From positions 124,001 to 188,000 of the forward strand of contig VXOJ01000011.1 in assembly GCA_009840115.1 (NCBI GenBank): a stretch of 64,000 nt of DNA, written 5' to 3'. Shown in pieces: positions 50,663 through 58,974 of the stretch (its first letter is position 1; each line of letters begins with the position of its first letter). The notes beneath the pieces were generated by a model. It did no database searches and was not told the origin of the DNA. It saw only the letters and a program-made list of their open reading frames with translations. The translations under genes and the position numbers were made by a program. Origin of the DNA: Gemmatimonadales bacterium (GTDB lineage: Bacteria; Gemmatimonadota; Gemmatimonadetes; Palauibacterales; Palauibacteraceae).

Positions 50663-50710
50663 TCGTCTAGCTGTAACCTGAACACAGATTGCGAACGATC
50701 GATGCCGGCC
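50654..50710 (+). promoter_or_regulatory. Antiterminator stem of the his attenuator
   Basis: GGCCGG (50654-50659) can pair with CCGGCC (50705-50710), and GATCGT (50661-50666) with ACGATC (50695-50700), making an extended stem with a small bulge. The first arm overlaps the end of the leader frame; the last arm is the left half of the terminator. Formation of one excludes the other. The palindrome CCGCGTACGCGG at 50641-50652 could provide the competing upstream hairpin. Confidence 0.65.
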
Positions 50711-50730
50711 CGGGGTGGCCGGCTTTTTTT
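50704..50730 (+). terminator. Intrinsic terminator (his attenuator)
   Basis: GCCGGCC (50704-50710) and GGCCGGC (50717-50723) form a perfect 7-bp GC stem with a 6-nt loop, directly followed by seven T. It lies between the leader peptide and hisG, 43 bp before the hisG start, so it must be conditional. Confidence 0.85.
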
Positions 50731-50773
50731 GTCGCTGCCCTCCCCTCCGGCCTCGGCCTCCCGAGCCCAGGAC

Positions 50774-51637
50774 ATGAACCACAAAACGACAAGACTCGCC
50801 CTGCCGAAGGGGCGGATGCAGTCCGGCGTACTCGAACTGCTGACCGCCGCCGGCGTGCGGGTGGATCTCGGGGAACGCCGCTACCGCCCGGTCATCTCCA
50901 TCCCCGGTTTCGGCGCCAAGTTGCTCAAGCCGCAGAACGTCGTGGAGATGCTGCACGCGGGATCCCGCGACCTGGGATTCGCGGGGGCCGACTGGGTGGC
51001 GGAACTGAACGGATCGCTGGTCGAGCTTCTGGACACGGGGCTCGACCCCGTGCGCGTCGTGGCGGCCGCTCCGTCGCGGATCGCCGGGGCGGGACTGCGT
51101 GCCGCCGGCCACCTCACGGTCGCGTCCGAATACGCGCGGCTCTCCTCGCGCTGGATCGAAGATCGGGAACTCGACGCGACGCTCGTGCGGTCGTACGGCG
51201 CGACGGAGGTGTTCCCGCCGGAGGACGCCGACGTCATCGTCGACAACACCGCGACGGGCGCAACGCTCGACGCCAACGGGCTCGAGATCGTCGACGAACT
51301 CATGACTTCATCGACCCGCCTCTACGCGAATCCGCGCGCGCTCGAGGACCCACGGCACCGCGAGCGCATCGAGGACCTGGTCGTGGTGCTGAAGTCGGTG
51401 GTGGAGGCCCGGCAGCGGGTCATGCTTGAAGTCAACGTGGACGCGGCGCGGCTGGATGGCCTGGTGGCCGTGCTCCCCTGCATGCGCAAGCCGACGGTGT
51501 CGCGTCTGCACGGCGAAGAGGGTTACGCCATCCGGGTCGCGGTGCTGCGCGAGGCGCTTCCGGGCCTGATCCCGCGCGTGAAGGCGCGAGGCGGCACCGA
51601 TCTTGTCGTGACGACGCCGGGGCAGATCGTCGCATGA
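50774..51637 (+). CDS. hisG: ATP phosphoribosyltransferase, long form
   Basis: HisG catalyses the first step of histidine synthesis. The 287-residue protein has the catalytic domain (LALPKGRMQ, DLGFAGADWV, TGATLDANGLEIVDELM) and the C-terminal regulatory domain that binds histidine (QRVMLEVNV to TDLVVTTPGQIV). This is the hexameric long form, so no HisZ is needed. The ATG at 50774 precedes the family start by seven residues. Confidence 0.95.
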   Translation: MNHKTTRLALPKGRMQSGVLELLTAAGVRVDLGERRYRPVISIPGFGAKLLKPQNVVEMLHAGSRDLGFAGADWVAELNGSLVELLDTGLDPVRVVAAAPSRIAGAGLRAAGHLTVASEYARLSSRWIEDRELDATLVRSYGATEVFPPEDADVIVDNTATGATLDANGLEIVDELMTSSTRLYANPRALEDPRHRERIEDLVVVLKSVVEARQRVMLEVNVDAARLDGLVAVLPCMRKPTVSRLHGEEGYAIRVAVLREALPGLIPRVKARGGTDLVVTTPGQIVA

Positions 51638-52650
51638 GCGGGCTGACGGTGGCCGCACCACCGAGCGAACGGCTCCGGCTCGATCACAACGAGCGCCTGT
51701 TCCCCGCGCCGGAACTCGTCCGTCTCCTCTCGCAGGTGCCGGCGAGTGCCCTGACGCGGTATCCGGAGGCCGCCGGCCTGGAGGCGTCCCTCGGCGAAGC
51801 CTGGGACCTGGAAGCCGACCGCGTCCTGGTCACGGCGGGAGCGGATGACGCGATCGACCGCGTGTGCCGCCGCTGGCTCGCCGGCGGGCGGGAGATGATC
51901 ACCGTGACTCCCACGTTCGAGATGATCCCGGCCTTCGCGGCGCTCGCGGGCGGACGGGTGCGGTCGATACCCACGCTTGACGACCCCGCGCCTCTCGGGC
52001 CCATCCTCGACCGGGTCGGGGAACGGACGGGGCTGGTCGCCGTAATCTCGCCGCACAACCCCACGGGAACGGTGGCCCCGGTCGAGCGAATCCTCGCCAT
52101 CGCCGACGGCCTGCCGGCGAACGCCGCGCTGCTCGTCGATCTGGCGTACGTCGAGTTCGCCGACCGCGACCCGACGCGGGAACTGCTGCAGCGCGACAAC
52201 GTCCTCGTCGTACGGACGCTGTCCAAGGCGTGGGGCCTCGCGGGGCTTCGCACGGGTTTCGTGCTGGGCCCGCGCGCGGCGATCGCGGACCTCCGCACCG
52301 GCGGCGCGCCCTTCCCTCTTGCGGGCCCCTCCATCTGGTTGGCGGAGCAGGCGCTGGGGTTGGGCGACCGGGTCACCGCGACGTACGTGGCCGCCGTGCG
52401 CCGCGAGCGCGGGCGGCTCGTCTCGGCGCTGCGCGCGTCAGGGGCCGAGCCCTTCGAATCGCAGGCGAACTTCGTGCTCGCCTCCACCGACCGCGCCGCC
52501 GCCCTGCACCGCGGCTTTCGGCAACGGGGCGTCGCCATCCGACGCTTTCCGAACTTCCCGGACCTGGTCCGGATCACGCTTCCGGGGGAAGAGGCGACGT
52601 TCCGCCACCTCCTCCGTGCGCTCGACTCGACGTTTGGACACATCTCGTGA
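51634..52650 (+). CDS. hisC: Histidinol-phosphate aminotransferase
   Basis: A 338-residue class I/II PLP aminotransferase. LRLDHNERLFPAPELV is the N-terminal substrate motif, ISPHNPTG binds cofactor, and the Schiff-base Lys lies in TLSKAWGLAGLRTGF. The ATG overlaps the hisG stop (ATGA). Within this operon the histidinol-phosphate role is clear. Confidence 0.94.
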   Translation: MSGLTVAAPPSERLRLDHNERLFPAPELVRLLSQVPASALTRYPEAAGLEASLGEAWDLEADRVLVTAGADDAIDRVCRRWLAGGREMITVTPTFEMIPAFAALAGGRVRSIPTLDDPAPLGPILDRVGERTGLVAVISPHNPTGTVAPVERILAIADGLPANAALLVDLAYVEFADRDPTRELLQRDNVLVVRTLSKAWGLAGLRTGFVLGPRAAIADLRTGGAPFPLAGPSIWLAEQALGLGDRVTATYVAAVRRERGRLVSALRASGAEPFESQANFVLASTDRAAALHRGFRQRGVAIRRFPNFPDLVRITLPGEEATFRHLLRALDSTFGHIS

Positions 52651-52661
52651 AGGGGATTCCC

Positions 52662-53312
52662 ATGAATGCGAACTCGAATGCGAACTCGGGAGAGAGTCTC
52701 CCGGCCAACGGGCGGGTGGGAGAGCGGTCCCGGCGGACGCTCGAGACCCGCATCGAAGCCCGGCTGGACCTGGACCGCCGGGGACGCAGCCGCGTCGATA
52801 CCGGGCTGCCGTTTCTCGATCACATGATCGGCGCCGCGGTCTTTCACGGCGGCATGACGCTGGATCTGCGGGCGCAGGGCGACCTCGACATCGACGACCA
52901 CCACACGGTGGAAGACTGCGGGCTCGTCTTCGGTTCGGTCATCCGCGAAGCGCTCGGGGACCGGCGGGGGATTCGGCGCTTCGGGTACGCCTACGCGCCT
53001 CTCGACGAGGCGCTCGCCCGGGCGGTCGTGGACCTTTCCGGGCGTCCCTTCGCCAGCGTGGACCTCGGCCTGCGGCGCGAGCTGCTGGGGACGGTCGCGA
53101 CCGAGAATCTCTCCCACTTCTTCGCCTCGCTCGCGACATCGGGAGGCCTGACGCTTCACCTGGATGTGATCCGCGGCGACAACGACCACCATCGCGCGGA
53201 GGCCGCCTTCAAGGCGTTCGGTCTCGCCCTCGCCGACGCGGTCGCGGAGCGCTCCGCGGCCGGAGTTCCGAGCACGAAGGGCGTGCTCGAATCGGCCGGG
53301 TTGCCTCAATGA
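52662..53312 (+). CDS. hisB: Imidazoleglycerol-phosphate dehydratase (monofunctional)
   Basis: The 216-residue enzyme carries the paired metal motifs FLDHMI, DIDDHHTVED and later NLSHFF and DNDHHRAEAAFKAF, which hold the Mn ions. Only the dehydratase domain is present, not the N-terminal phosphatase of enteric HisB. The first 25 residues (an Asn/Ser-rich stretch) are extra. It starts 11 bp after hisC behind AAGGGG. Confidence 0.95.
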   Translation: MNANSNANSGESLPANGRVGERSRRTLETRIEARLDLDRRGRSRVDTGLPFLDHMIGAAVFHGGMTLDLRAQGDLDIDDHHTVEDCGLVFGSVIREALGDRRGIRRFGYAYAPLDEALARAVVDLSGRPFASVDLGLRRELLGTVATENLSHFFASLATSGGLTLHLDVIRGDNDHHRAEAAFKAFGLALADAVAERSAAGVPSTKGVLESAGLPQ

Positions 53313-53992
53313 GCGCCGCGCGGATGGCAACGGGTCCGGAAGATGTCGGGATCGTTCCGACGGGCGTGGCGAATCTCGAGGCGGTGGCGGCCGCTTTCCG
53401 GCGCCTGGGAAGAACCCCGCGGCTGCTGGATTCCGCCACGGGAATATCGAGCGCCGATTACGTCGTCCTTCCGGGCGTGGGGTCGTTCGCCGGAGGCATG
53501 GCGGAGCTTCGCCGGCGTGGCTGGGCGGAGGCCGTCCGCGGACGCGTGGAGCAGGGACGGCCGACGCTCGCCATCTGTCTCGGACTTCAACTCCTGTGCG
53601 AGGAGAGCGAGGAAGCGCCGGGCACCGCCGGTCTCGGGTGCGTACCGGGCCGCGTGGTCCGGCTGGCGGAGAGCTGCCGCGTCCCGCAGTTGGGCTGGAA
53701 CCGCGTCGCGGCCCCGGCCGGGACCGTGTTCCTGCGATCATCCGTCGTCTACTTCGCCAACTCCTACGGGCTCGAAGCGGGTCCCGCGGGCTGGACCGCC
53801 GCGATGGGGCGGCACGGAAGCCGCTTCGTGGCGGGGCTGGAGCGCGGCGGAGTCCTCGCCTGCCAGTTCCACCCGGAGTTGTCGGGGAAGGTCGGCGCGG
53901 GCCTCCTGAAGCGATGGCTTGACGAATCGCCGGGCGCGGCGGCGGCGTTCGAACCGCGCGCGCAACGGCCCACGCTCGCGGCGGCATGCTGA
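53309..53992 (+). CDS. hisH: Imidazole glycerol phosphate synthase, glutaminase subunit
   Basis: A 227-residue class I glutamine amidotransferase. Nucleophile Cys in AICLGLQLLCE, oxyanion PGVGSF, and the His-Glu pair in CQFHPELSG. It feeds ammonia to HisF. Overlaps hisB by 4 bp (ATGA) and hisF by 7 bp. The C-terminal tail (about 25 residues after KRWLDE) is longer than usual. Confidence 0.94.
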   Translation: MSAARMATGPEDVGIVPTGVANLEAVAAAFRRLGRTPRLLDSATGISSADYVVLPGVGSFAGGMAELRRRGWAEAVRGRVEQGRPTLAICLGLQLLCEESEEAPGTAGLGCVPGRVVRLAESCRVPQLGWNRVAAPAGTVFLRSSVVYFANSYGLEAGPAGWTAAMGRHGSRFVAGLERGGVLACQFHPELSGKVGAGLLKRWLDESPGAAAAFEPRAQRPTLAAAC

Positions 53993-54753
53993 ACGTTCGG
54001 GTCATTCCGTGCCTGGACGTGAGGGACGGAAGGGTCGTCAAGGGCGTCCGTTTCGACAACCTCGCGGATCAGGGCGACCCCGCCCGGCTCGCGCGGCGCT
54101 ACGAGCGCGAAGGGGCGGACGAACTCGTGATCCTCGATGTCTCGGCTACGGCGGAGGGAAGAGTGGCCCGGTTCGAGACGGTGGGGCGCGTGCGGGACGA
54201 GATCTCGATTCCGCTCACGGTCGGCGGCGGCGTGCGGACGGCGGAAGACGCGGGCGCCCTGCTGGAGGCGGGGGCGGACCGGGTGGCGGTGAACACGGCG
54301 GCGGTCGAGCGGCCGGAACTCCTGTCGGAGATCGCGACCCGGTTCGGGGCCCAGTGCGCGGTTTTGGCCCTCGACGGCGGCGCGACGTCGGACGAGACGT
54401 GTGCGAGCGGCTTCGAGGTTCTGACACACTCGGGAAGCCGGCGCACGGGCGTCGATGCCGCGGAGTGGAGCCGCCAGGCGGCGGAGCTGGGCGCGGGCGA
54501 GATCCTCCTCACGAGCTTCGACCGCGACGGTACGCGGAGCGGCTACGATCTGGCCCTGATCGGCGTCATCCGGGAAGCCGTGCCGGTGCCGATCGTCGCT
54601 TCGGGCGGGGGAGCCCATGCGGGTCACATGTGCGCGGCGGTCGAGGCGGGAGCCGACGCGGTTCTGGCGGCGTCGATCTTCCATCAGGGCGACTGGTCGA
54701 TCGGCCGACTCAAGGACCGGCTGCAGCAGCTCGGGGTCGCGGTGCGCCGATGA
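53986..54753 (+). CDS. hisF: Imidazole glycerol phosphate synthase, cyclase subunit
   Basis: A 255-residue TIM barrel of standard length: IPCLDVRDGRVVKGVRF holds catalytic Asp near residue 11 and AVLALDGG the second near residue 128; phosphate loops are TVGGGVRTAEDA and ASGGGAHAGHM. It ends exactly at the fused hisAIED gene (ATGA). Confidence 0.95.
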   Translation: MLNVRVIPCLDVRDGRVVKGVRFDNLADQGDPARLARRYEREGADELVILDVSATAEGRVARFETVGRVRDEISIPLTVGGGVRTAEDAGALLEAGADRVAVNTAAVERPELLSEIATRFGAQCAVLALDGGATSDETCASGFEVLTHSGSRRTGVDAAEWSRQAAELGAGEILLTSFDRDGTRSGYDLALIGVIREAVPVPIVASGGGAHAGHMCAAVEAGADAVLAASIFHQGDWSIGRLKDRLQQLGVAVRR

Positions 54754-57395
54754 TCATCCCATCCATCGACCTCATGGGCGGCCGGGCCGTGCAGCTTCGT
54801 CAGGGCTCGACGCTTGAGATCGATGCCGGCGACCCGCAGCCTCTCGCCGAGAGGTTCGCCGTGGCGGGGGAAGTCGCGATCATCGACCTCGACGCGGCGC
54901 TCGGCCGCGGAGACAACGCCGCCCTGATCCGCGAACTGCTCCGGCTCGCGCCGTGTCGGGTGGGCGGCGGCATTCGGTCCCGCGAGGCGGCGCTCGACTG
55001 GCTCGACGCGGGTGCGCGGCGCGTGATCCTGGGCACGGCCGCGACGCCCGAGGTGCTGGGCGGACTTCCCGCGGAACGCGTGATCGCGGCGCTCGACGCG
55101 CGCGACGGCGAGGTCGTCGTGGAAGGCTGGCGGCGCGGGACGGGCCGCGACGTGCTCGGGCGCATGGAGGAGCTCGACGGCCTCGCGGACGGCTATCTGG
55201 TCACCTTCGTGGAGGTCGAAGGCACCCTGGAGGGGATCCCGCTGGATCGCGTATCCGCCCTCGTCGCGGCCGCCGGATCCGCGCGCGTGACGGTGGCGGG
55301 CGGCGTCCGCGAGGTCGCGGAGATCGCGGCGCTGGACCGAATGGGCGCGGACGCGCAGGTGGGGATGGCGATCTACAGCGGGCGCATGGATCTGGCCGAC
55401 GCCATCTCGGCTCCGCTGAAGTCCGACCGGGCCGACGGGTTGTGGGCGACGCTGGTCGAGGACACGGCCGGGCGCGCGCTCGGGCTCGCCTGGTCGAGCG
55501 CGGAGAGCCTGCGCACCGCCGTCAGGGAACGGCGGGGCGTCTACCAGAGCCGCTCACGGGGACTCTGGAGGAAGGGCGAGACATCCGGCGCCACGCAGGA
55601 ACTCGTCCGCGTGGCGCCGGACTGTGACCGCGACACGCTGCGCTTCACGGTGCGACAGCACGGGACCGGCTTCTGTCACACGGGCGCCCCGACGTGTTTC
55701 GACGCGGCGCCGTCCCGGGGGTCGGCCGCGCTGCCGCCTCTGTCGGGCATGAGTCTGTCCGACCTCGAGACCCGCCTCCGCGAGCGGCTCGCCGAACCGG
55801 AGCCGGGCTCGCTGACCGCGCGACTCGCCGGGGATCCCGAGTTGATGCGGGGGAAGCTCGTCGAGGAAGCGCGCGAACTGGCGGAAGCCGGATCGAAGGC
55901 GGACGCGGTGGCGGAGTTCGCGGACCTGTACTACTTCGCCCTCACGCGGCTTGTGAAGGCCGGCGGTTCCCTCGACGACGTGCGTGTCGAACTCCAGCGG
56001 CGCGCCCTCAAGGTGCGCCGTCGGGTCCCCAGGCCGCCGGAAGGGCCGACCGGGCGGAGGGACCGGGCGCCCGCGGCGGCTGCGGCGGGCGCGATCCTGC
56101 CGCCGATCGGCCTCGAGGAGGCCGTGCGGGCGGTGCGCTCGCCGGCGCTCGATCCGGCGGCGCTCGAGGTCGCGCGGACGATCCTGGACGATGTCGAGCG
56201 GCGCGGAGAGCCGGCGCTTCGCGAGCATGCCGAGCGGCTCGGCGACCTCGAGCCGGGCGACGACCTGCTCCTCGACCGGGCGGCGCTCAAGCGCGCGACG
56301 GAGGCACTGCACGCCGACGACCGCGAGTTGCTGCGCCGCGTGGCCGACCGGATCCGGACGTTCGCGGAGGCCCAGCGGGCATCCGCGACCGACCTCGACA
56401 CGCCGGTCGCGGGCGGCCGCGGCGGCCATCGGCTCGTGCCCGTCGGAGCGGCCGGCTGCTACGCGCCCGGGGGGCGCTTCCCCCTCCCGTCCTCGGTGCT
56501 CATGACCGCCATCCCCGCGAGGGTGGCGGGCGCGGGCGGCGTCTGGGCGGCATCGCCGCGCCCGACCGCGGCGGTCCGGGCCGCGGCGTTCATCGCCGGC
56601 GCGGACGGCCTGCTGGCCATCGGCGGCGCGCAGGCGATCGGCGCGCTCGCCTTCGGCGTCGGAGGCGTCGACCGCTGCGAGAAGATCGTGGGGCCGGGCA
56701 ACCGGTTCGTCACGGCGGCCAAGCGCCTCCTCTACGGCCGGGTCGGCCTCGACACCATCGCCGGCCCGTCCGAGCTGCTCGTCGTCGCCTCGCCGGATGC
56801 CGCGCCCGCCCGCGTCGCGGCCGACCTGCTCGCCCAGGCCGAGCACGACCCCGACGCCGTGCCGCTTCTGTGCGCCTTCGACGAAGCGACCGTCGAGGCC
56901 GTCCGCGAAGAGGCCGAGCGGCAGCTGGCCGCGCTGCCGACCGCGCCGATCGCGCGTCAGGCCCTGGCGGCCGGCGGCGCCCTCCTCGCGGCCAGCCCCG
57001 ACGAGGCCGCCGCCATCTGCGACGCGGTCGCCCCGGAGCACCTGCACCTGCACGGCGACCTCGCCGAGTCGCTTGCCCGCCGCGTCGACCGCTTCGGATC
57101 GCTCTTCCTGGGGGCGGCCACGCCCGAGGCGGCCGGTGACTACGGAGCCGGACCGAACCACACGCTTCCCACATCGGGCGCGGCGGCGTTCGACTCCGGG
57201 CTCTCCGTGTTCTCGTTCCTGCGGCGACCGACGTGGCTGGCGCTTTCGGCGGAAGATGACGCCTACGAGGACCTGCTGCGCGACACCGCCGCGCTCGCCC
57301 GACTGGAGGGACTGGAAGCGCACGCGCTTTCGGCCGAACGCCGGCTCACGGCAGCGGCCCGGGAGGATCGCGGTCGGAAGGTCCGCGCCTCGTGA
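54750..57395 (+). CDS. Tetrafunctional HisA-HisI-HisE-HisD fusion protein
   Basis: One 881-residue frame covers four enzymes. Residues 1-222 are the HisA isomerase barrel ([33 protein letters not shown]; Asp7 and Asp116 present). 223-318 are the HisI cyclohydrolase ([33 protein letters not shown]). 333-425 are the HisE pyrophosphatase ([21 protein letters not shown]). 450-881 are HisD dehydrogenase ([44 protein letters not shown] with the Zn ligands Gln, His, Asp, His). No stop, frame change or internal ribosome site is visible at the joints, and no separate hisA, I, E or D is in the operon. Domain order I-E-D and motifs such as [20 protein letters not shown] recall fungal HIS4. Confidence 0.92.
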
Positions 57396-57795
57396 GGTGG
57401 TCGAGGGCGCGGTCCACGGCGTCCTTCGTCGAGGCCGTGATCCCGCCCCTTTCGTACTCCTGCACCGCCAGCCGCTCCAGGCGGTCGACGAGCGCATCGA
57501 CCCCGGGCCGCGGGGACGACGTCAGGGCGCGGACGTGGTCGGTGGCGCCGAACAGGTTGATCCAGTACTCCGTCCGGCGCCCCCACTCCAGCAGCGCGTA
57601 GAACTGTCGGCCCGCCCGGGGCCCGATTCCGAGCACGTCGAGGAGGGCGACGAAGAGCGAGATCGGCAGCAGCAACGCATCCCTCAGCCCATCGAGGAGC
57701 AGTTTCAGCTGGAAGACGGCCACGTCGCGCATGAGCGTCCATCGGGAGGGAACGATTTCGGGATGCAGGGTTGCTCTGGCGGGAAACTCGTCCAT
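57346..57795 (-). CDS. Small conserved hypothetical protein
   Basis: A 149-residue protein with an amphipathic/hydrophobic centre (VAVFQLKLLLDGLRDALLLPISLFVALLDVLG) and RTEYWINLFGATDHV, which is reminiscent of short proteobacterial and gemmatimonadal proteins of unknown role. It could associate with the membrane. Its 3' end overlaps the his fusion gene by 50 bp on the opposite strand. Confidence 0.6.
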   Translation of the reverse strand: MDEFPARATLHPEIVPSRWTLMRDVAVFQLKLLLDGLRDALLLPISLFVALLDVLGIGPRAGRQFYALLEWGRRTEYWINLFGATDHVRALTSSPRPGVDALVDRLERLAVQEYERGGITASTKDAVDRALDHLTRRGPSDRDPPGPLP

Positions 57796-57908: not shown

Positions 57909-58511
57909 TTGAACAGCTCGGAGGCAACCGACCGGATGCTCGTTCTTCGCGCGCAGCGCGGCGAGCGTGCGGCCTTCGGCGAACTCGTCACACGATACAT
58001 GCAACGTGCCTACTTTACCGCGCTCGGCCTCGTCGGGAACCACGACGATGCCCTGGACCTCTCTCAGGAAGCCTTCGCCAGGGCGTTCCGCGCGCGCGCC
58101 AGGATCGACCCCGAACGTCCCTTCTTCCCCTGGCTGTACCAGATCATCCGACGCCTCTGTTTCAACCATACGCGAGACCAGCGGCTGCACCGCCTGAAAC
58201 TCGAGAAGGCGGGCAGCTGGCTTACGGACACGACGATGGGGCGGCGCCCGCTCAGCCCCGATCAGGCGGTGATGCGTTCGGAACTGCGCGAACAGGTCGG
58301 CGCGGCCATCGAACGCCTGCCCGAGCGGGAACGGGAGACGCTCGTCCTGCGCGAGTTTGAGGAACTTCGTTACCGCGAGATCGCCGAGTTGCTGGGAATC
58401 CCCATCGGCACGGTGATGTCGCGCCTCTATCGGGCGCGGCGGTCTCTCGCGCGTGAGATGGAGGCGACGGGAACGCGCCCCGGCCGGGGGGGAGGTGCGG
58501 GCGATGAGTGA
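57909..58511 (+). CDS. ECF-type RNA polymerase sigma factor
   Basis: A 200-residue sigma-70 family protein with region 2 (FGELVTRYMQRAYFTALGLV, DDALDLSQEAFARAF) and region 4 (LPERERETLVLREFEELRYREIAELLGIPIGTVMSRLYRARR), without region 3: an ECF sigma factor of the RpoE group. The start appears to be TTG at 57909 after GGGAG; an ATG at 57936 would cut into helix 1. It overlaps the putative anti-sigma gene by 8 bp. Confidence 0.92.
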   Translation: MNSSEATDRMLVLRAQRGERAAFGELVTRYMQRAYFTALGLVGNHDDALDLSQEAFARAFRARARIDPERPFFPWLYQIIRRLCFNHTRDQRLHRLKLEKAGSWLTDTTMGRRPLSPDQAVMRSELREQVGAAIERLPERERETLVLREFEELRYREIAELLGIPIGTVMSRLYRARRSLAREMEATGTRPGRGGGAGDE

Positions 58512-58974
58512 GAGAAACGTGCATCCGCCCGGGGACGAGCGGGTGCGCCATCTGATGATGGCCGAACTGGACCGGGAGATTTCGGGAAAGGGACGGCGCG
58601 AACTCGAGTCCGCGCTCGAAGAGAACCCGGGTCTTCGCGACGAACTGGCGTCATACCAGCGCCTGAAGGAGGTCACCGACACCATGGCTCCGCTGAAGCC
58701 GCCGGAGGAAACCTGGGACAGTTACTGGGAACACGTCTATCGCCGGCTCGAACGCGGCATCGGCTGGGTCCTGGTCTCGCTGGGAACGATCATCGTGGGG
58801 ACGTGGGCGCTGTGGGCCGCCGTGAGTGAACTGATTCGGGACACGACGATGCCCGCGTACATTCGCTGGAGCATGCTCGCGCTGATCGCCGGCTTCGTGA
58901 TCCTGTTCGTCTCCGTCGTTCGCGAGCGCCTGTTCATGCAGAAGAAAGACCCCTACAAGGACGTGGTCCGATGA
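58504..58974 (+). CDS. Membrane-bound anti-sigma factor candidate
   Basis: The 156-residue protein has a cytoplasmic N-terminus with a short zinc-finger-less anti-sigma-like helix bundle (HLMMAELDREISGKGRRELESALEENPGLRDELASYQRL) and two transmembrane helices (GWVLVSLGTIIVGTWALWAAV, LALIAGFVILFVSVV). Translational coupling to the sigma gene is the main evidence. No HxxxCxxC motif was found. Confidence 0.7.
   Translation: MSERNVHPPGDERVRHLMMAELDREISGKGRRELESALEENPGLRDELASYQRLKEVTDTMAPLKPPEETWDSYWEHVYRRLERGIGWVLVSLGTIIVGTWALWAAVSELIRDTTMPAYIRWSMLALIAGFVILFVSVVRERLFMQKKDPYKDVVR

What the first reader, a model, noticed from the sequence alone, without database searches (positions are those of the whole stretch)
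54750..57395. HisA-HisI-HisE-HisD four-enzyme fusion with the domain order of fungal HIS4
A single uninterrupted 881-codon frame carries four histidine-synthesis enzymes. In fungi HIS4 is HisI-HisE-HisD after a poorly conserved N-terminal region; here the same order follows an N-terminal HisA barrel that keeps its catalytic Asp residues. The HisI part shows unusual eukaryote-like motifs ([27 protein letters not shown]) and the HisE part [18 protein letters not shown] resembles the yeast one as recalled from memory. The fungal N-terminal region might therefore be a decayed HisA domain, and bacteria of this kind might be related to the source of HIS4. The evolutionary part is inference.
Basis: partly seen in the sequence, partly recalled or inferred. 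Interest (0 to 1): 0.85.

Follow-up and report, generated by a model that had tools for sequence, protein, structure and literature searches.

The report
Four-enzyme histidine fusion resembling fungal HIS4
This bacterium makes four of its histidine-building enzymes as one protein, built on a three-enzyme fusion found in many bacterial groups that looks like the ancestor of part of the fungal HIS4 gene, whose unexplained front end may be a worn-out copy of the first enzyme.

Summary
Window 54750-57395 encodes one 881-residue chain HisA-HisI-HisE-HisD, the only full copy of each enzyme found in a 98% complete genome, last gene of a his operon (G-C-B-H-F-[AIED]). It is intact in 13 of 17 genomes of its genus (Candidatus Palauibacter, Gemmatimonadota).

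It is not isolated. It belongs to a HisA-HisI-HisE fusion family: 71 of the 80 best related loci, from records named as about a dozen phyla, nearly all followed by hisD. In 14 of 76 such ORFs hisD is joined in frame; joins or splits happened at least three times.

The HIS4 idea is half right. With three fungal HIS4 proteins recalled from memory (lengths equal the published ones), fungal HisIE lies inside this bacterial family (98/90 support; an AU test was indecisive). Fungal HisD does not: it groups with plant, Bacteroides and E. coli HisD. So the E-D join probably arose separately in fungi and bacteria, while A-I-E is probably shared. The fungal N-terminus sits where HisA should be; one of three sequences shows a HisA/HisF signal. 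Two bacterial relatives appear to have lost one domain inside the fusion, so such decay occurs. Database fungal and amoebal sequences are needed to settle it.

The parts
50702..51637 (+). hisG (first gene of the operon; start codon uncertain)
   Evidence: PF01634 E 7.4e-33, TIGR00070 over cut-off
51634..52650 (+). hisC (aminotransferase)
   Evidence: TIGR01141 E 4.1e-58, best match but below its cut-off
52647..53312 (+). hisB (GTG 52647 overlaps the hisC stop; 52662 or 52716 possible)
   Evidence: NF002111 E 6.9e-69; start codons
53309..53992 (+). hisH (glutamine amidotransferase)
   Evidence: GATase hits within residues 352-526 of ORF 52319-53992; ATG 53309
53986..54753 (+). hisF
   Evidence: TIGR00735 304 bits, over cut-off
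54750..57395 (+). HisA-HisI-HisE-HisD four-domain enzyme, 881 aa (P0001)
54750..55415 (+). HisA domain (residues 1-222), barrel; D7, D116, E157 at the acid positions
55416..55727 (+). HisI domain (223-326): SDRADGL, LGLAWS, DCDRD, GFCH...CF
55728..56024 (+). HisE domain (327-425)
56025..56111 (+). E-D linker (426-454), low confidence in the model (427-445 under 50)
56112..57395 (+). HisD domain (455-881)

Best explanation
A working multifunctional enzyme of the histidine pathway: HisE and HisI (steps 2 and 3), HisA (step 4) and HisD (the last two oxidations), translated as one chain from the last gene of a tightly overlapping operon hisG-C-B-H-F-[AIED]. Its core is a bacterial HisA-HisI-HisE fusion with one origin; hisD, the next gene in most relatives, was fused to it, most simply several times. 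Fungal HIS4 most likely took its N-terminal region and HisIE from this A-I-E family, its HisA having decayed, and joined it independently to a HisD of another lineage. Shown: architecture, single copies, conservation, residues, the bacterial family, and at least three changes in the HisD join. Shown only with recalled fungal sequences: the HisIE and HisD placements. Inferred: catalytic activity, decayed HisA in HIS4, several joins rather than one join and splits, direction of transfer.
For: Domains, single copies and active-site residues; intact in 13 of 17 genomes of the genus; order G-C-B-H-F-[AIE]-D, its fused form or a shorter stretch of it in 71 of 75 loci; fused HisA one clade, 99 SH-aLRT, 36 rows chosen from 76; HisD label needs 5 changes, at least 3 forced by well supported branches (quick tree); fungal HisIE inside the A-I-E clade, 100/98 and 98/90; fungal HisD with Medicago 99, and with E. 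coli/Bacteroides 100; motifs shared by family and fungi, absent from ordinary HisI; N. crassa N-terminus against a HisA+HisF profile: HHalign probability 83, best of 200 decoys 4.4; a HisI that lost its motifs inside the fusion while a separate HisI exists, and a degenerate HisA.
Against: Fungal sequences were recalled, not fetched; no real HIS4 was found in the collections searched. The AU test did not reject an A-I-E clade without fungi (p 0.195, log-likelihood 39.6 lower). Against a profile of fused HisA alone the N. crassa N-terminus reaches only probability 18.9, and the other two fungal N-termini give no HHalign signal; Pfam finds no HisA in any. No enzyme assay exists; an internal start at GTG 56124 after GAGGAGG could also yield free HisD.
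Confidence: 0.75

Rival explanations
1. HIS4 and the bacterial A-I-E family resemble each other because HisIE evolves slowly or convergently; HIS4's N-terminus is an unrelated structural extension.
For: Two of three fungal N-termini show no HHalign signal, and the third matches the HisA+HisF profile better than the fused-HisA profile; Fani 2007 found no homologues (section read); HisIE is short and the AU test is not decisive.
Against: Best A-I-E matches 49-56% against 33-41% for full-length ordinary HisIE, nesting with 98-100 bootstrap, shared motifs in 59 and 63 of 77 A-I rows and all three fungi against none of 37 ordinary rows, and an N-terminal length published as 160-220 residues against 222 here (S. 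cerevisiae about 145).
Confidence: 0.2
2. The whole A-I-E-D fusion is orthologous to HIS4: one fusion event, shared by bacteria and fungi.
For: Same I-E-D order; HisIE relationship.
Against: Fungal HisD lies with plant, Bacteroides and E. coli HisD, apart from all HisD of A-I-E loci in the tree (98), at 35-38% identity to the window HisD; within bacteria the join changed state at least three times.
Confidence: 0.05
3. The fusion is an assembly or frameshift product, or a decaying copy.
For: Most relatives have the HisD domain in another frame directly after A-I-E, so one indel would join them.
Against: 13 of 17 genomes of the genus, down to 65% identity, with no stop; no second copy.
Confidence: 0.02

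Closest known systems
Fungal HIS4 (I-E-D; Fani 2007, PMC1963479, sections 7 and 8 read)
   Same: Order I-E-D; HisIE of the same subfamily by recalled sequences; an N-terminal region before HisI
   Different: HisA recognisable here, with two of three acid positions Asp and one Glu; unrecognised by Pfam in HIS4; HisD of another lineage
Acanthamoeba seven-enzyme histidine protein (PMC6029752; passages and section 19 read)
   Same: Listed as HisHF, HisA, HisI, HisE, HisD, HisG: the bacterial order H-F-A-I-E-D, if the list follows the chain (figure not held)
Archaeal HisA/F-HisIE fusions (cluster 787.1, PMC11237513, passages read)
   Same: HisA/F joined to HisIE
   Different: Reported from four archaeal metagenomic assemblies; the paper found no HisIE-HisD fusion in Archaea
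Bifunctional HisIE (E. coli, plant HISN2)
   Same: Two of the four domains in the same order
   Different: No HisA or HisD; a different HisIE branch

Membership tests
HisA (ProFAR isomerase) | Profile match and barrel | tested here: met
   PF00977 136.5 bits, cut-off 23.6; HisA/PriA structures at TM 0.80-0.85 of target length. NCBIfam HisA equivalog cut-offs not reached
HisA (ProFAR isomerase) | Catalytic acids D7, D129, D176 (E. coli numbers; roles recalled) | tested here: inconclusive
   D7 and D116 present; the third is Glu157, near-invariant as Glu in a 20-row family alignment
HisI / HisE | Profile match over cut-off; metal-binding Asp and Cys of HisI (roles recalled) | tested here: met
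   86.4 (27) and 45.8 (21.3) bits; D291, C292, D293, C309, C316. HisE active-site residues not mapped
HisD | Profile match; zinc and catalytic residues (roles recalled) | tested here: met
   393 bits; TIGR00069 over cut-off; all six positions
Fungal HIS4 | Domain order I-E-D in one chain | tested here: met
Fungal HIS4 | HisIE of HIS4 lineage | tested here: inconclusive
   Fungi nest within the family in both trees, but with recalled sequences, and the AU test is indecisive
Fungal HIS4 | HisD of HIS4 lineage | tested here: not met
   (recalled fungal sequences); hence not filed as HIS4
Fungal HIS4 | N-terminal region homologous to HisA | tested here: inconclusive
   N. crassa yes with the HisA+HisF profile; P. 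pastoris and S. cerevisiae no or weak
All four | Enzyme activity | not testable with these tools
   needs assay or complementation

The most novel reading that the evidence does not exclude
Fungal HIS4 is a captured bacterial HisA-HisI-HisE gene: the fungal N-terminal region, for which no homologue had been found, is a dead HisA barrel, and the amoebal seven-enzyme protein keeps the same bacterial gene order with HisA still in place.
Probability: 0.55. Interest if true: 0.75.

Novelty: new variant of a known kind. Interest (0 to 1): 0.62.

Why it matters
Fani 2007 (sections 7 and 8 read) reported no HIS4-like protein in prokaryotes and no homologue of the fungal N-terminal region. Both now have candidates: a bacterial A-I-E(-D) family, and HisA. 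This makes the origin of a textbook fungal gene testable with database sequences, and offers a natural series of fusion, further fusion and domain decay: in one relative HisI lost its motifs inside the fusion while a separate HisI gene exists, which is what fungi would have done with HisA and their separate HIS6 gene (HIS6 recalled).

Tried and rejected
Real fungal HIS4 was sought in plasmids and viral contigs: none. Yeast HIS7 (1jvn) ranked 34th of 41 chains against a bacterial HisHF of the family, so a transfer of the H-F part is not suggested; no HIS7 tree was made. Pfam on three fungal N-termini: no HisA. The eukaryotic HisA model TIGR02129 matched in 6 of 6 genomes but under its cut-off in all. 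The second AU test did not finish and was not repeated. Some decoys scored at or above the N. crassa N-terminus with the HMMs: two of 628 with one model (14.3 and 14.1 against 10.7 bits), one with another (13.5 against 12.9), none with the third; I did not identify them. In one search two contig-end fragments of HisIE (L066, L069; 46-57% identity) carry the label 'ordinary' only because their front is missing. In one search my pattern labelled six HisF rows as ordinary HisA; they fell with HisF and the fused clade is unaffected. In one search L113 is L077 again and was counted as ordinary HisI; without it the ordinary counts are 0 of 37 for the three fungal-type motifs. The deepest A-I rows score no better against the fungi than ordinary HisI. 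The model of L077 used an alignment of intact relatives, so its HisA-like fold may be partly imposed. In the order of the L077 genome, 187 of 196 genomes matched the L077 protein; the rows listed match mainly over HisI in ORFs of ordinary size, with one clear fused exception (L114).

Paper searches for prior reports: (listings). Opened: PMC1963479 (outline, sections 7 and 8), PMC6029752 (passages, section 19), PMC8305728, PMC10138114 and PMC11237513 (passages). What I saw holds no description of a bacterial A-I-E or A-I-E-D fusion or of HisA in HIS4; subscription papers are not covered.

Full report
WHAT IS THERE. Window 54750-57395 is one frame of 881 codons with HisA, HisI, HisE and HisD matches in that order. 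It starts inside the hisF stop codon and closes a compact operon hisG, hisC, hisB, hisH, hisF, [AIED]. The genome search found no other HisD or HisI, no other full HisE, and only hisF besides for the HisA/HisF family. Loci at 90-94% identity are named Candidatus Palauibacter or Gemmatimonadetes. In the same genus the full fusion is in 13 of 17 genomes, one is split over two contigs, and three have no match. Of 43 genomes from the same family, order and class, 18 matched: two (G045, G046) with A-I-E and a following hisD at 53-59% identity, 16 with separate genes at 36-46%. The gene was probably gained laterally (inference).

HOW IT WORKS. HisI cysteines and the six HisD positions are as in E. 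coli; HisA keeps D7 and D116, while the position of D176 is Glu157, near-invariant as Glu in a 20-row alignment of the fusions. The model has pLDDT 90.9 and pTM 0.55; the 50 Foldseek rows shown are HisD relatives and HisA/PriA, none HisI or HisE. I take it as an enzyme for pathway steps 2, 3, 4 and the last two oxidations (pathway knowledge recalled). Activity and channelling are not shown.

THE BACTERIAL FAMILY. Of these 80, 71 have HisA and HisI in one ORF; with five further ones (window, L101, L102, L103, L105) that is 76 ORFs, 72 of them with HisE and 14 with HisD too. The other nine are contig ends, HisD only, or L071 and L077. Records are named as Gemmatimonadota, Myxococcota, Planctomycetota, Spirochaetota, Acidobacteriota, Armatimonadota, Bdellovibrionota, Actinomycetota, Melainabacteria, Aminicenantes, KSB1 and others; nearly all are metagenome bins, so some names may be wrong. 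Gene order in 75 loci (window left out): 40 G-C-B-H-F-[AIE]-D and 11 G-C-B-H-F-[AIED]; 20 are shorter stretches of the same order (8 of them only [AIE]-D), and four deviate slightly (one each without C, without C and B, with a second C, with a second D) (distances were not weighed, and loci end at 6 kb or at contig ends). In 60 of 62 unfused cases the HisD domain begins 35-132 bases after the A-I-E stop, mostly in another frame; in L076 and L085 it lies over 2 kb away; in six loci (L012, L014, L015, L048, L058, L072) a single in-frame stop separates the two. Fused HisA domains form one clade (99 SH-aLRT, 36 of 76 put in). The HisD join needs 5 changes on the HisD tree, at least 3 forced by starred branches (quick), and 6 on the HisIE trees, at least 1 forced in the quick one and 3 in the careful one. 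Changes may be joins or splits; several joins are the simpler reading because the separate state prevails.

FUNGAL HIS4. No real fungal HIS4 was found, so I used three sequences recalled from memory. Their lengths (799, 844, 870) equal those in Table 3 of Fani 2007, and their HisD groups with plant HisD as published. This supports the recall but does not replace fetched records. HisIE: the twelve best matches of S. cerevisiae and of P. pastoris, all A-I-E proteins, are 49-56% identical; full-length ordinary HisIE 33-41%; L077 42%; two contig-end fragments labelled ordinary 46-57%. HisI alone: median identity 51, 51 and 57 to 77 A-I rows against 41, 39 and 41 to 38 ordinary ones; the deepest A-I rows overlap the ordinary range. 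Motifs DRxDGL-like (59 of 77) and LGLxYS-like (63 of 77) occur in all three fungi and in 0 of 37 ordinary HisI once a duplicate of L077 is removed; GFCH in 66 of 77 and in two of three fungi. Trees: quick and careful (54 of 90 rows) both put the fungi inside the A-I-E core (careful: 33 rows 100/98; 32 rows 98/90; within that 87/80). Against this, the AU test of an A-I-E clade without fungi gave p 0.195 in spite of a 39.6 lower log-likelihood. HisD: fungal HisD is 48-53% identical to E. coli and Bacteroides HisD and 35-38% to the window's; on the tree fungi join Medicago (99), then Bacteroides and Elizabethkingia (86) and E. coli (100), apart from HisD of A-I-E loci (98).

THE HIS4 N-TERMINUS. 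If HIS4 HisIE comes from A-I-E, its N-terminal region stands where HisA stood. Direct signal: N. crassa 43-186 aligns to 55-205 of a HisA+HisF profile, HHalign probability 83; against fused HisA alone only 18.9. An alignment of the three fungal N-termini gave 47 and 28. With the first profile 200 decoys reached at most 4.4 (decoys were not run on the second). With HMMs, 0 of 1000 shuffles reach the N. crassa score with two of three models and 1 of 1000 with the third; of 628 decoy ORFs 0, 2 and 1 do. P. pastoris and S. cerevisiae are weak or negative (3 to 42 of 1000 shuffles; 3 to 91 of 628 decoys). Precedents among real bacterial loci: L077 (Planctomycetaceae) has HisI-HisE of this family behind 180 residues in which HisA motifs are lost. 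Its sequence signal is weak (8, 136 and 58 of 1000 shuffles; 17, 176 and 84 of 628 decoys). Its model matches HisA at Z 9.8, tied with HisF at 9.1, and the alignment may have favoured this. In that genome PF00977 finds hisF and only partial or weak further matches, the best 25.6 bits over positions 74-222. L071 has intact HisA and HisE around a HisI without its motifs, and a separate HisI gene elsewhere.

KNOWN AND NEW. Fani 2007 found no HIS4-like protein in prokaryotes and no relative of the N-terminal region. Acanthamoeba has a seven-enzyme protein listed as HisHF, HisA, HisI, HisE, HisD, HisG. HisA/F-HisIE fusions were noted in four archaeal assemblies. In my searches I saw no bacterial description.

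VERDICT. Observation confirmed; interpretation partly supported: the A-I-E part is probably shared with HIS4, the HisD part is not.

Noticed in passing
L101, L053-L055, L051, L057, L064, L020, L027, L029, L050, L062, L065, L083, L068: HisH and HisF lie in one ORF in 15 of 75 A-I-E loci, a bacterial analogue of eukaryotic HIS7; in L062 and L068 HisH matched only in part.
   Followed up: partly
L071:6726-7925: HisI inside the fusion has lost its metal motifs while a separate HisI gene exists in the same genome.
   Followed up: partly
L077:6079-7209: HisIE of this family behind a degenerate HisA-like region; no full HisA match elsewhere in the bin.
   Followed up: yes
L085: Bin labelled Klebsiella pneumoniae carries a his gene that pairs with a Myxococcales bin (L076), so one of the labels is doubtful.
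   Followed up: no
L064:7506-8971: hisD split over two frames: frameshift or sequencing error.
   Followed up: no
57346-57795 (-): 149-residue ORF on the other strand overlaps the last 50 bases of the fusion gene; no Pfam or NCBIfam match.
   Followed up: no
57909-58974 (+): Sigma-70 family (ECF-like) sigma factor gene followed by an overlapping ORF without Pfam match, perhaps its anti-sigma factor.
   Followed up: no
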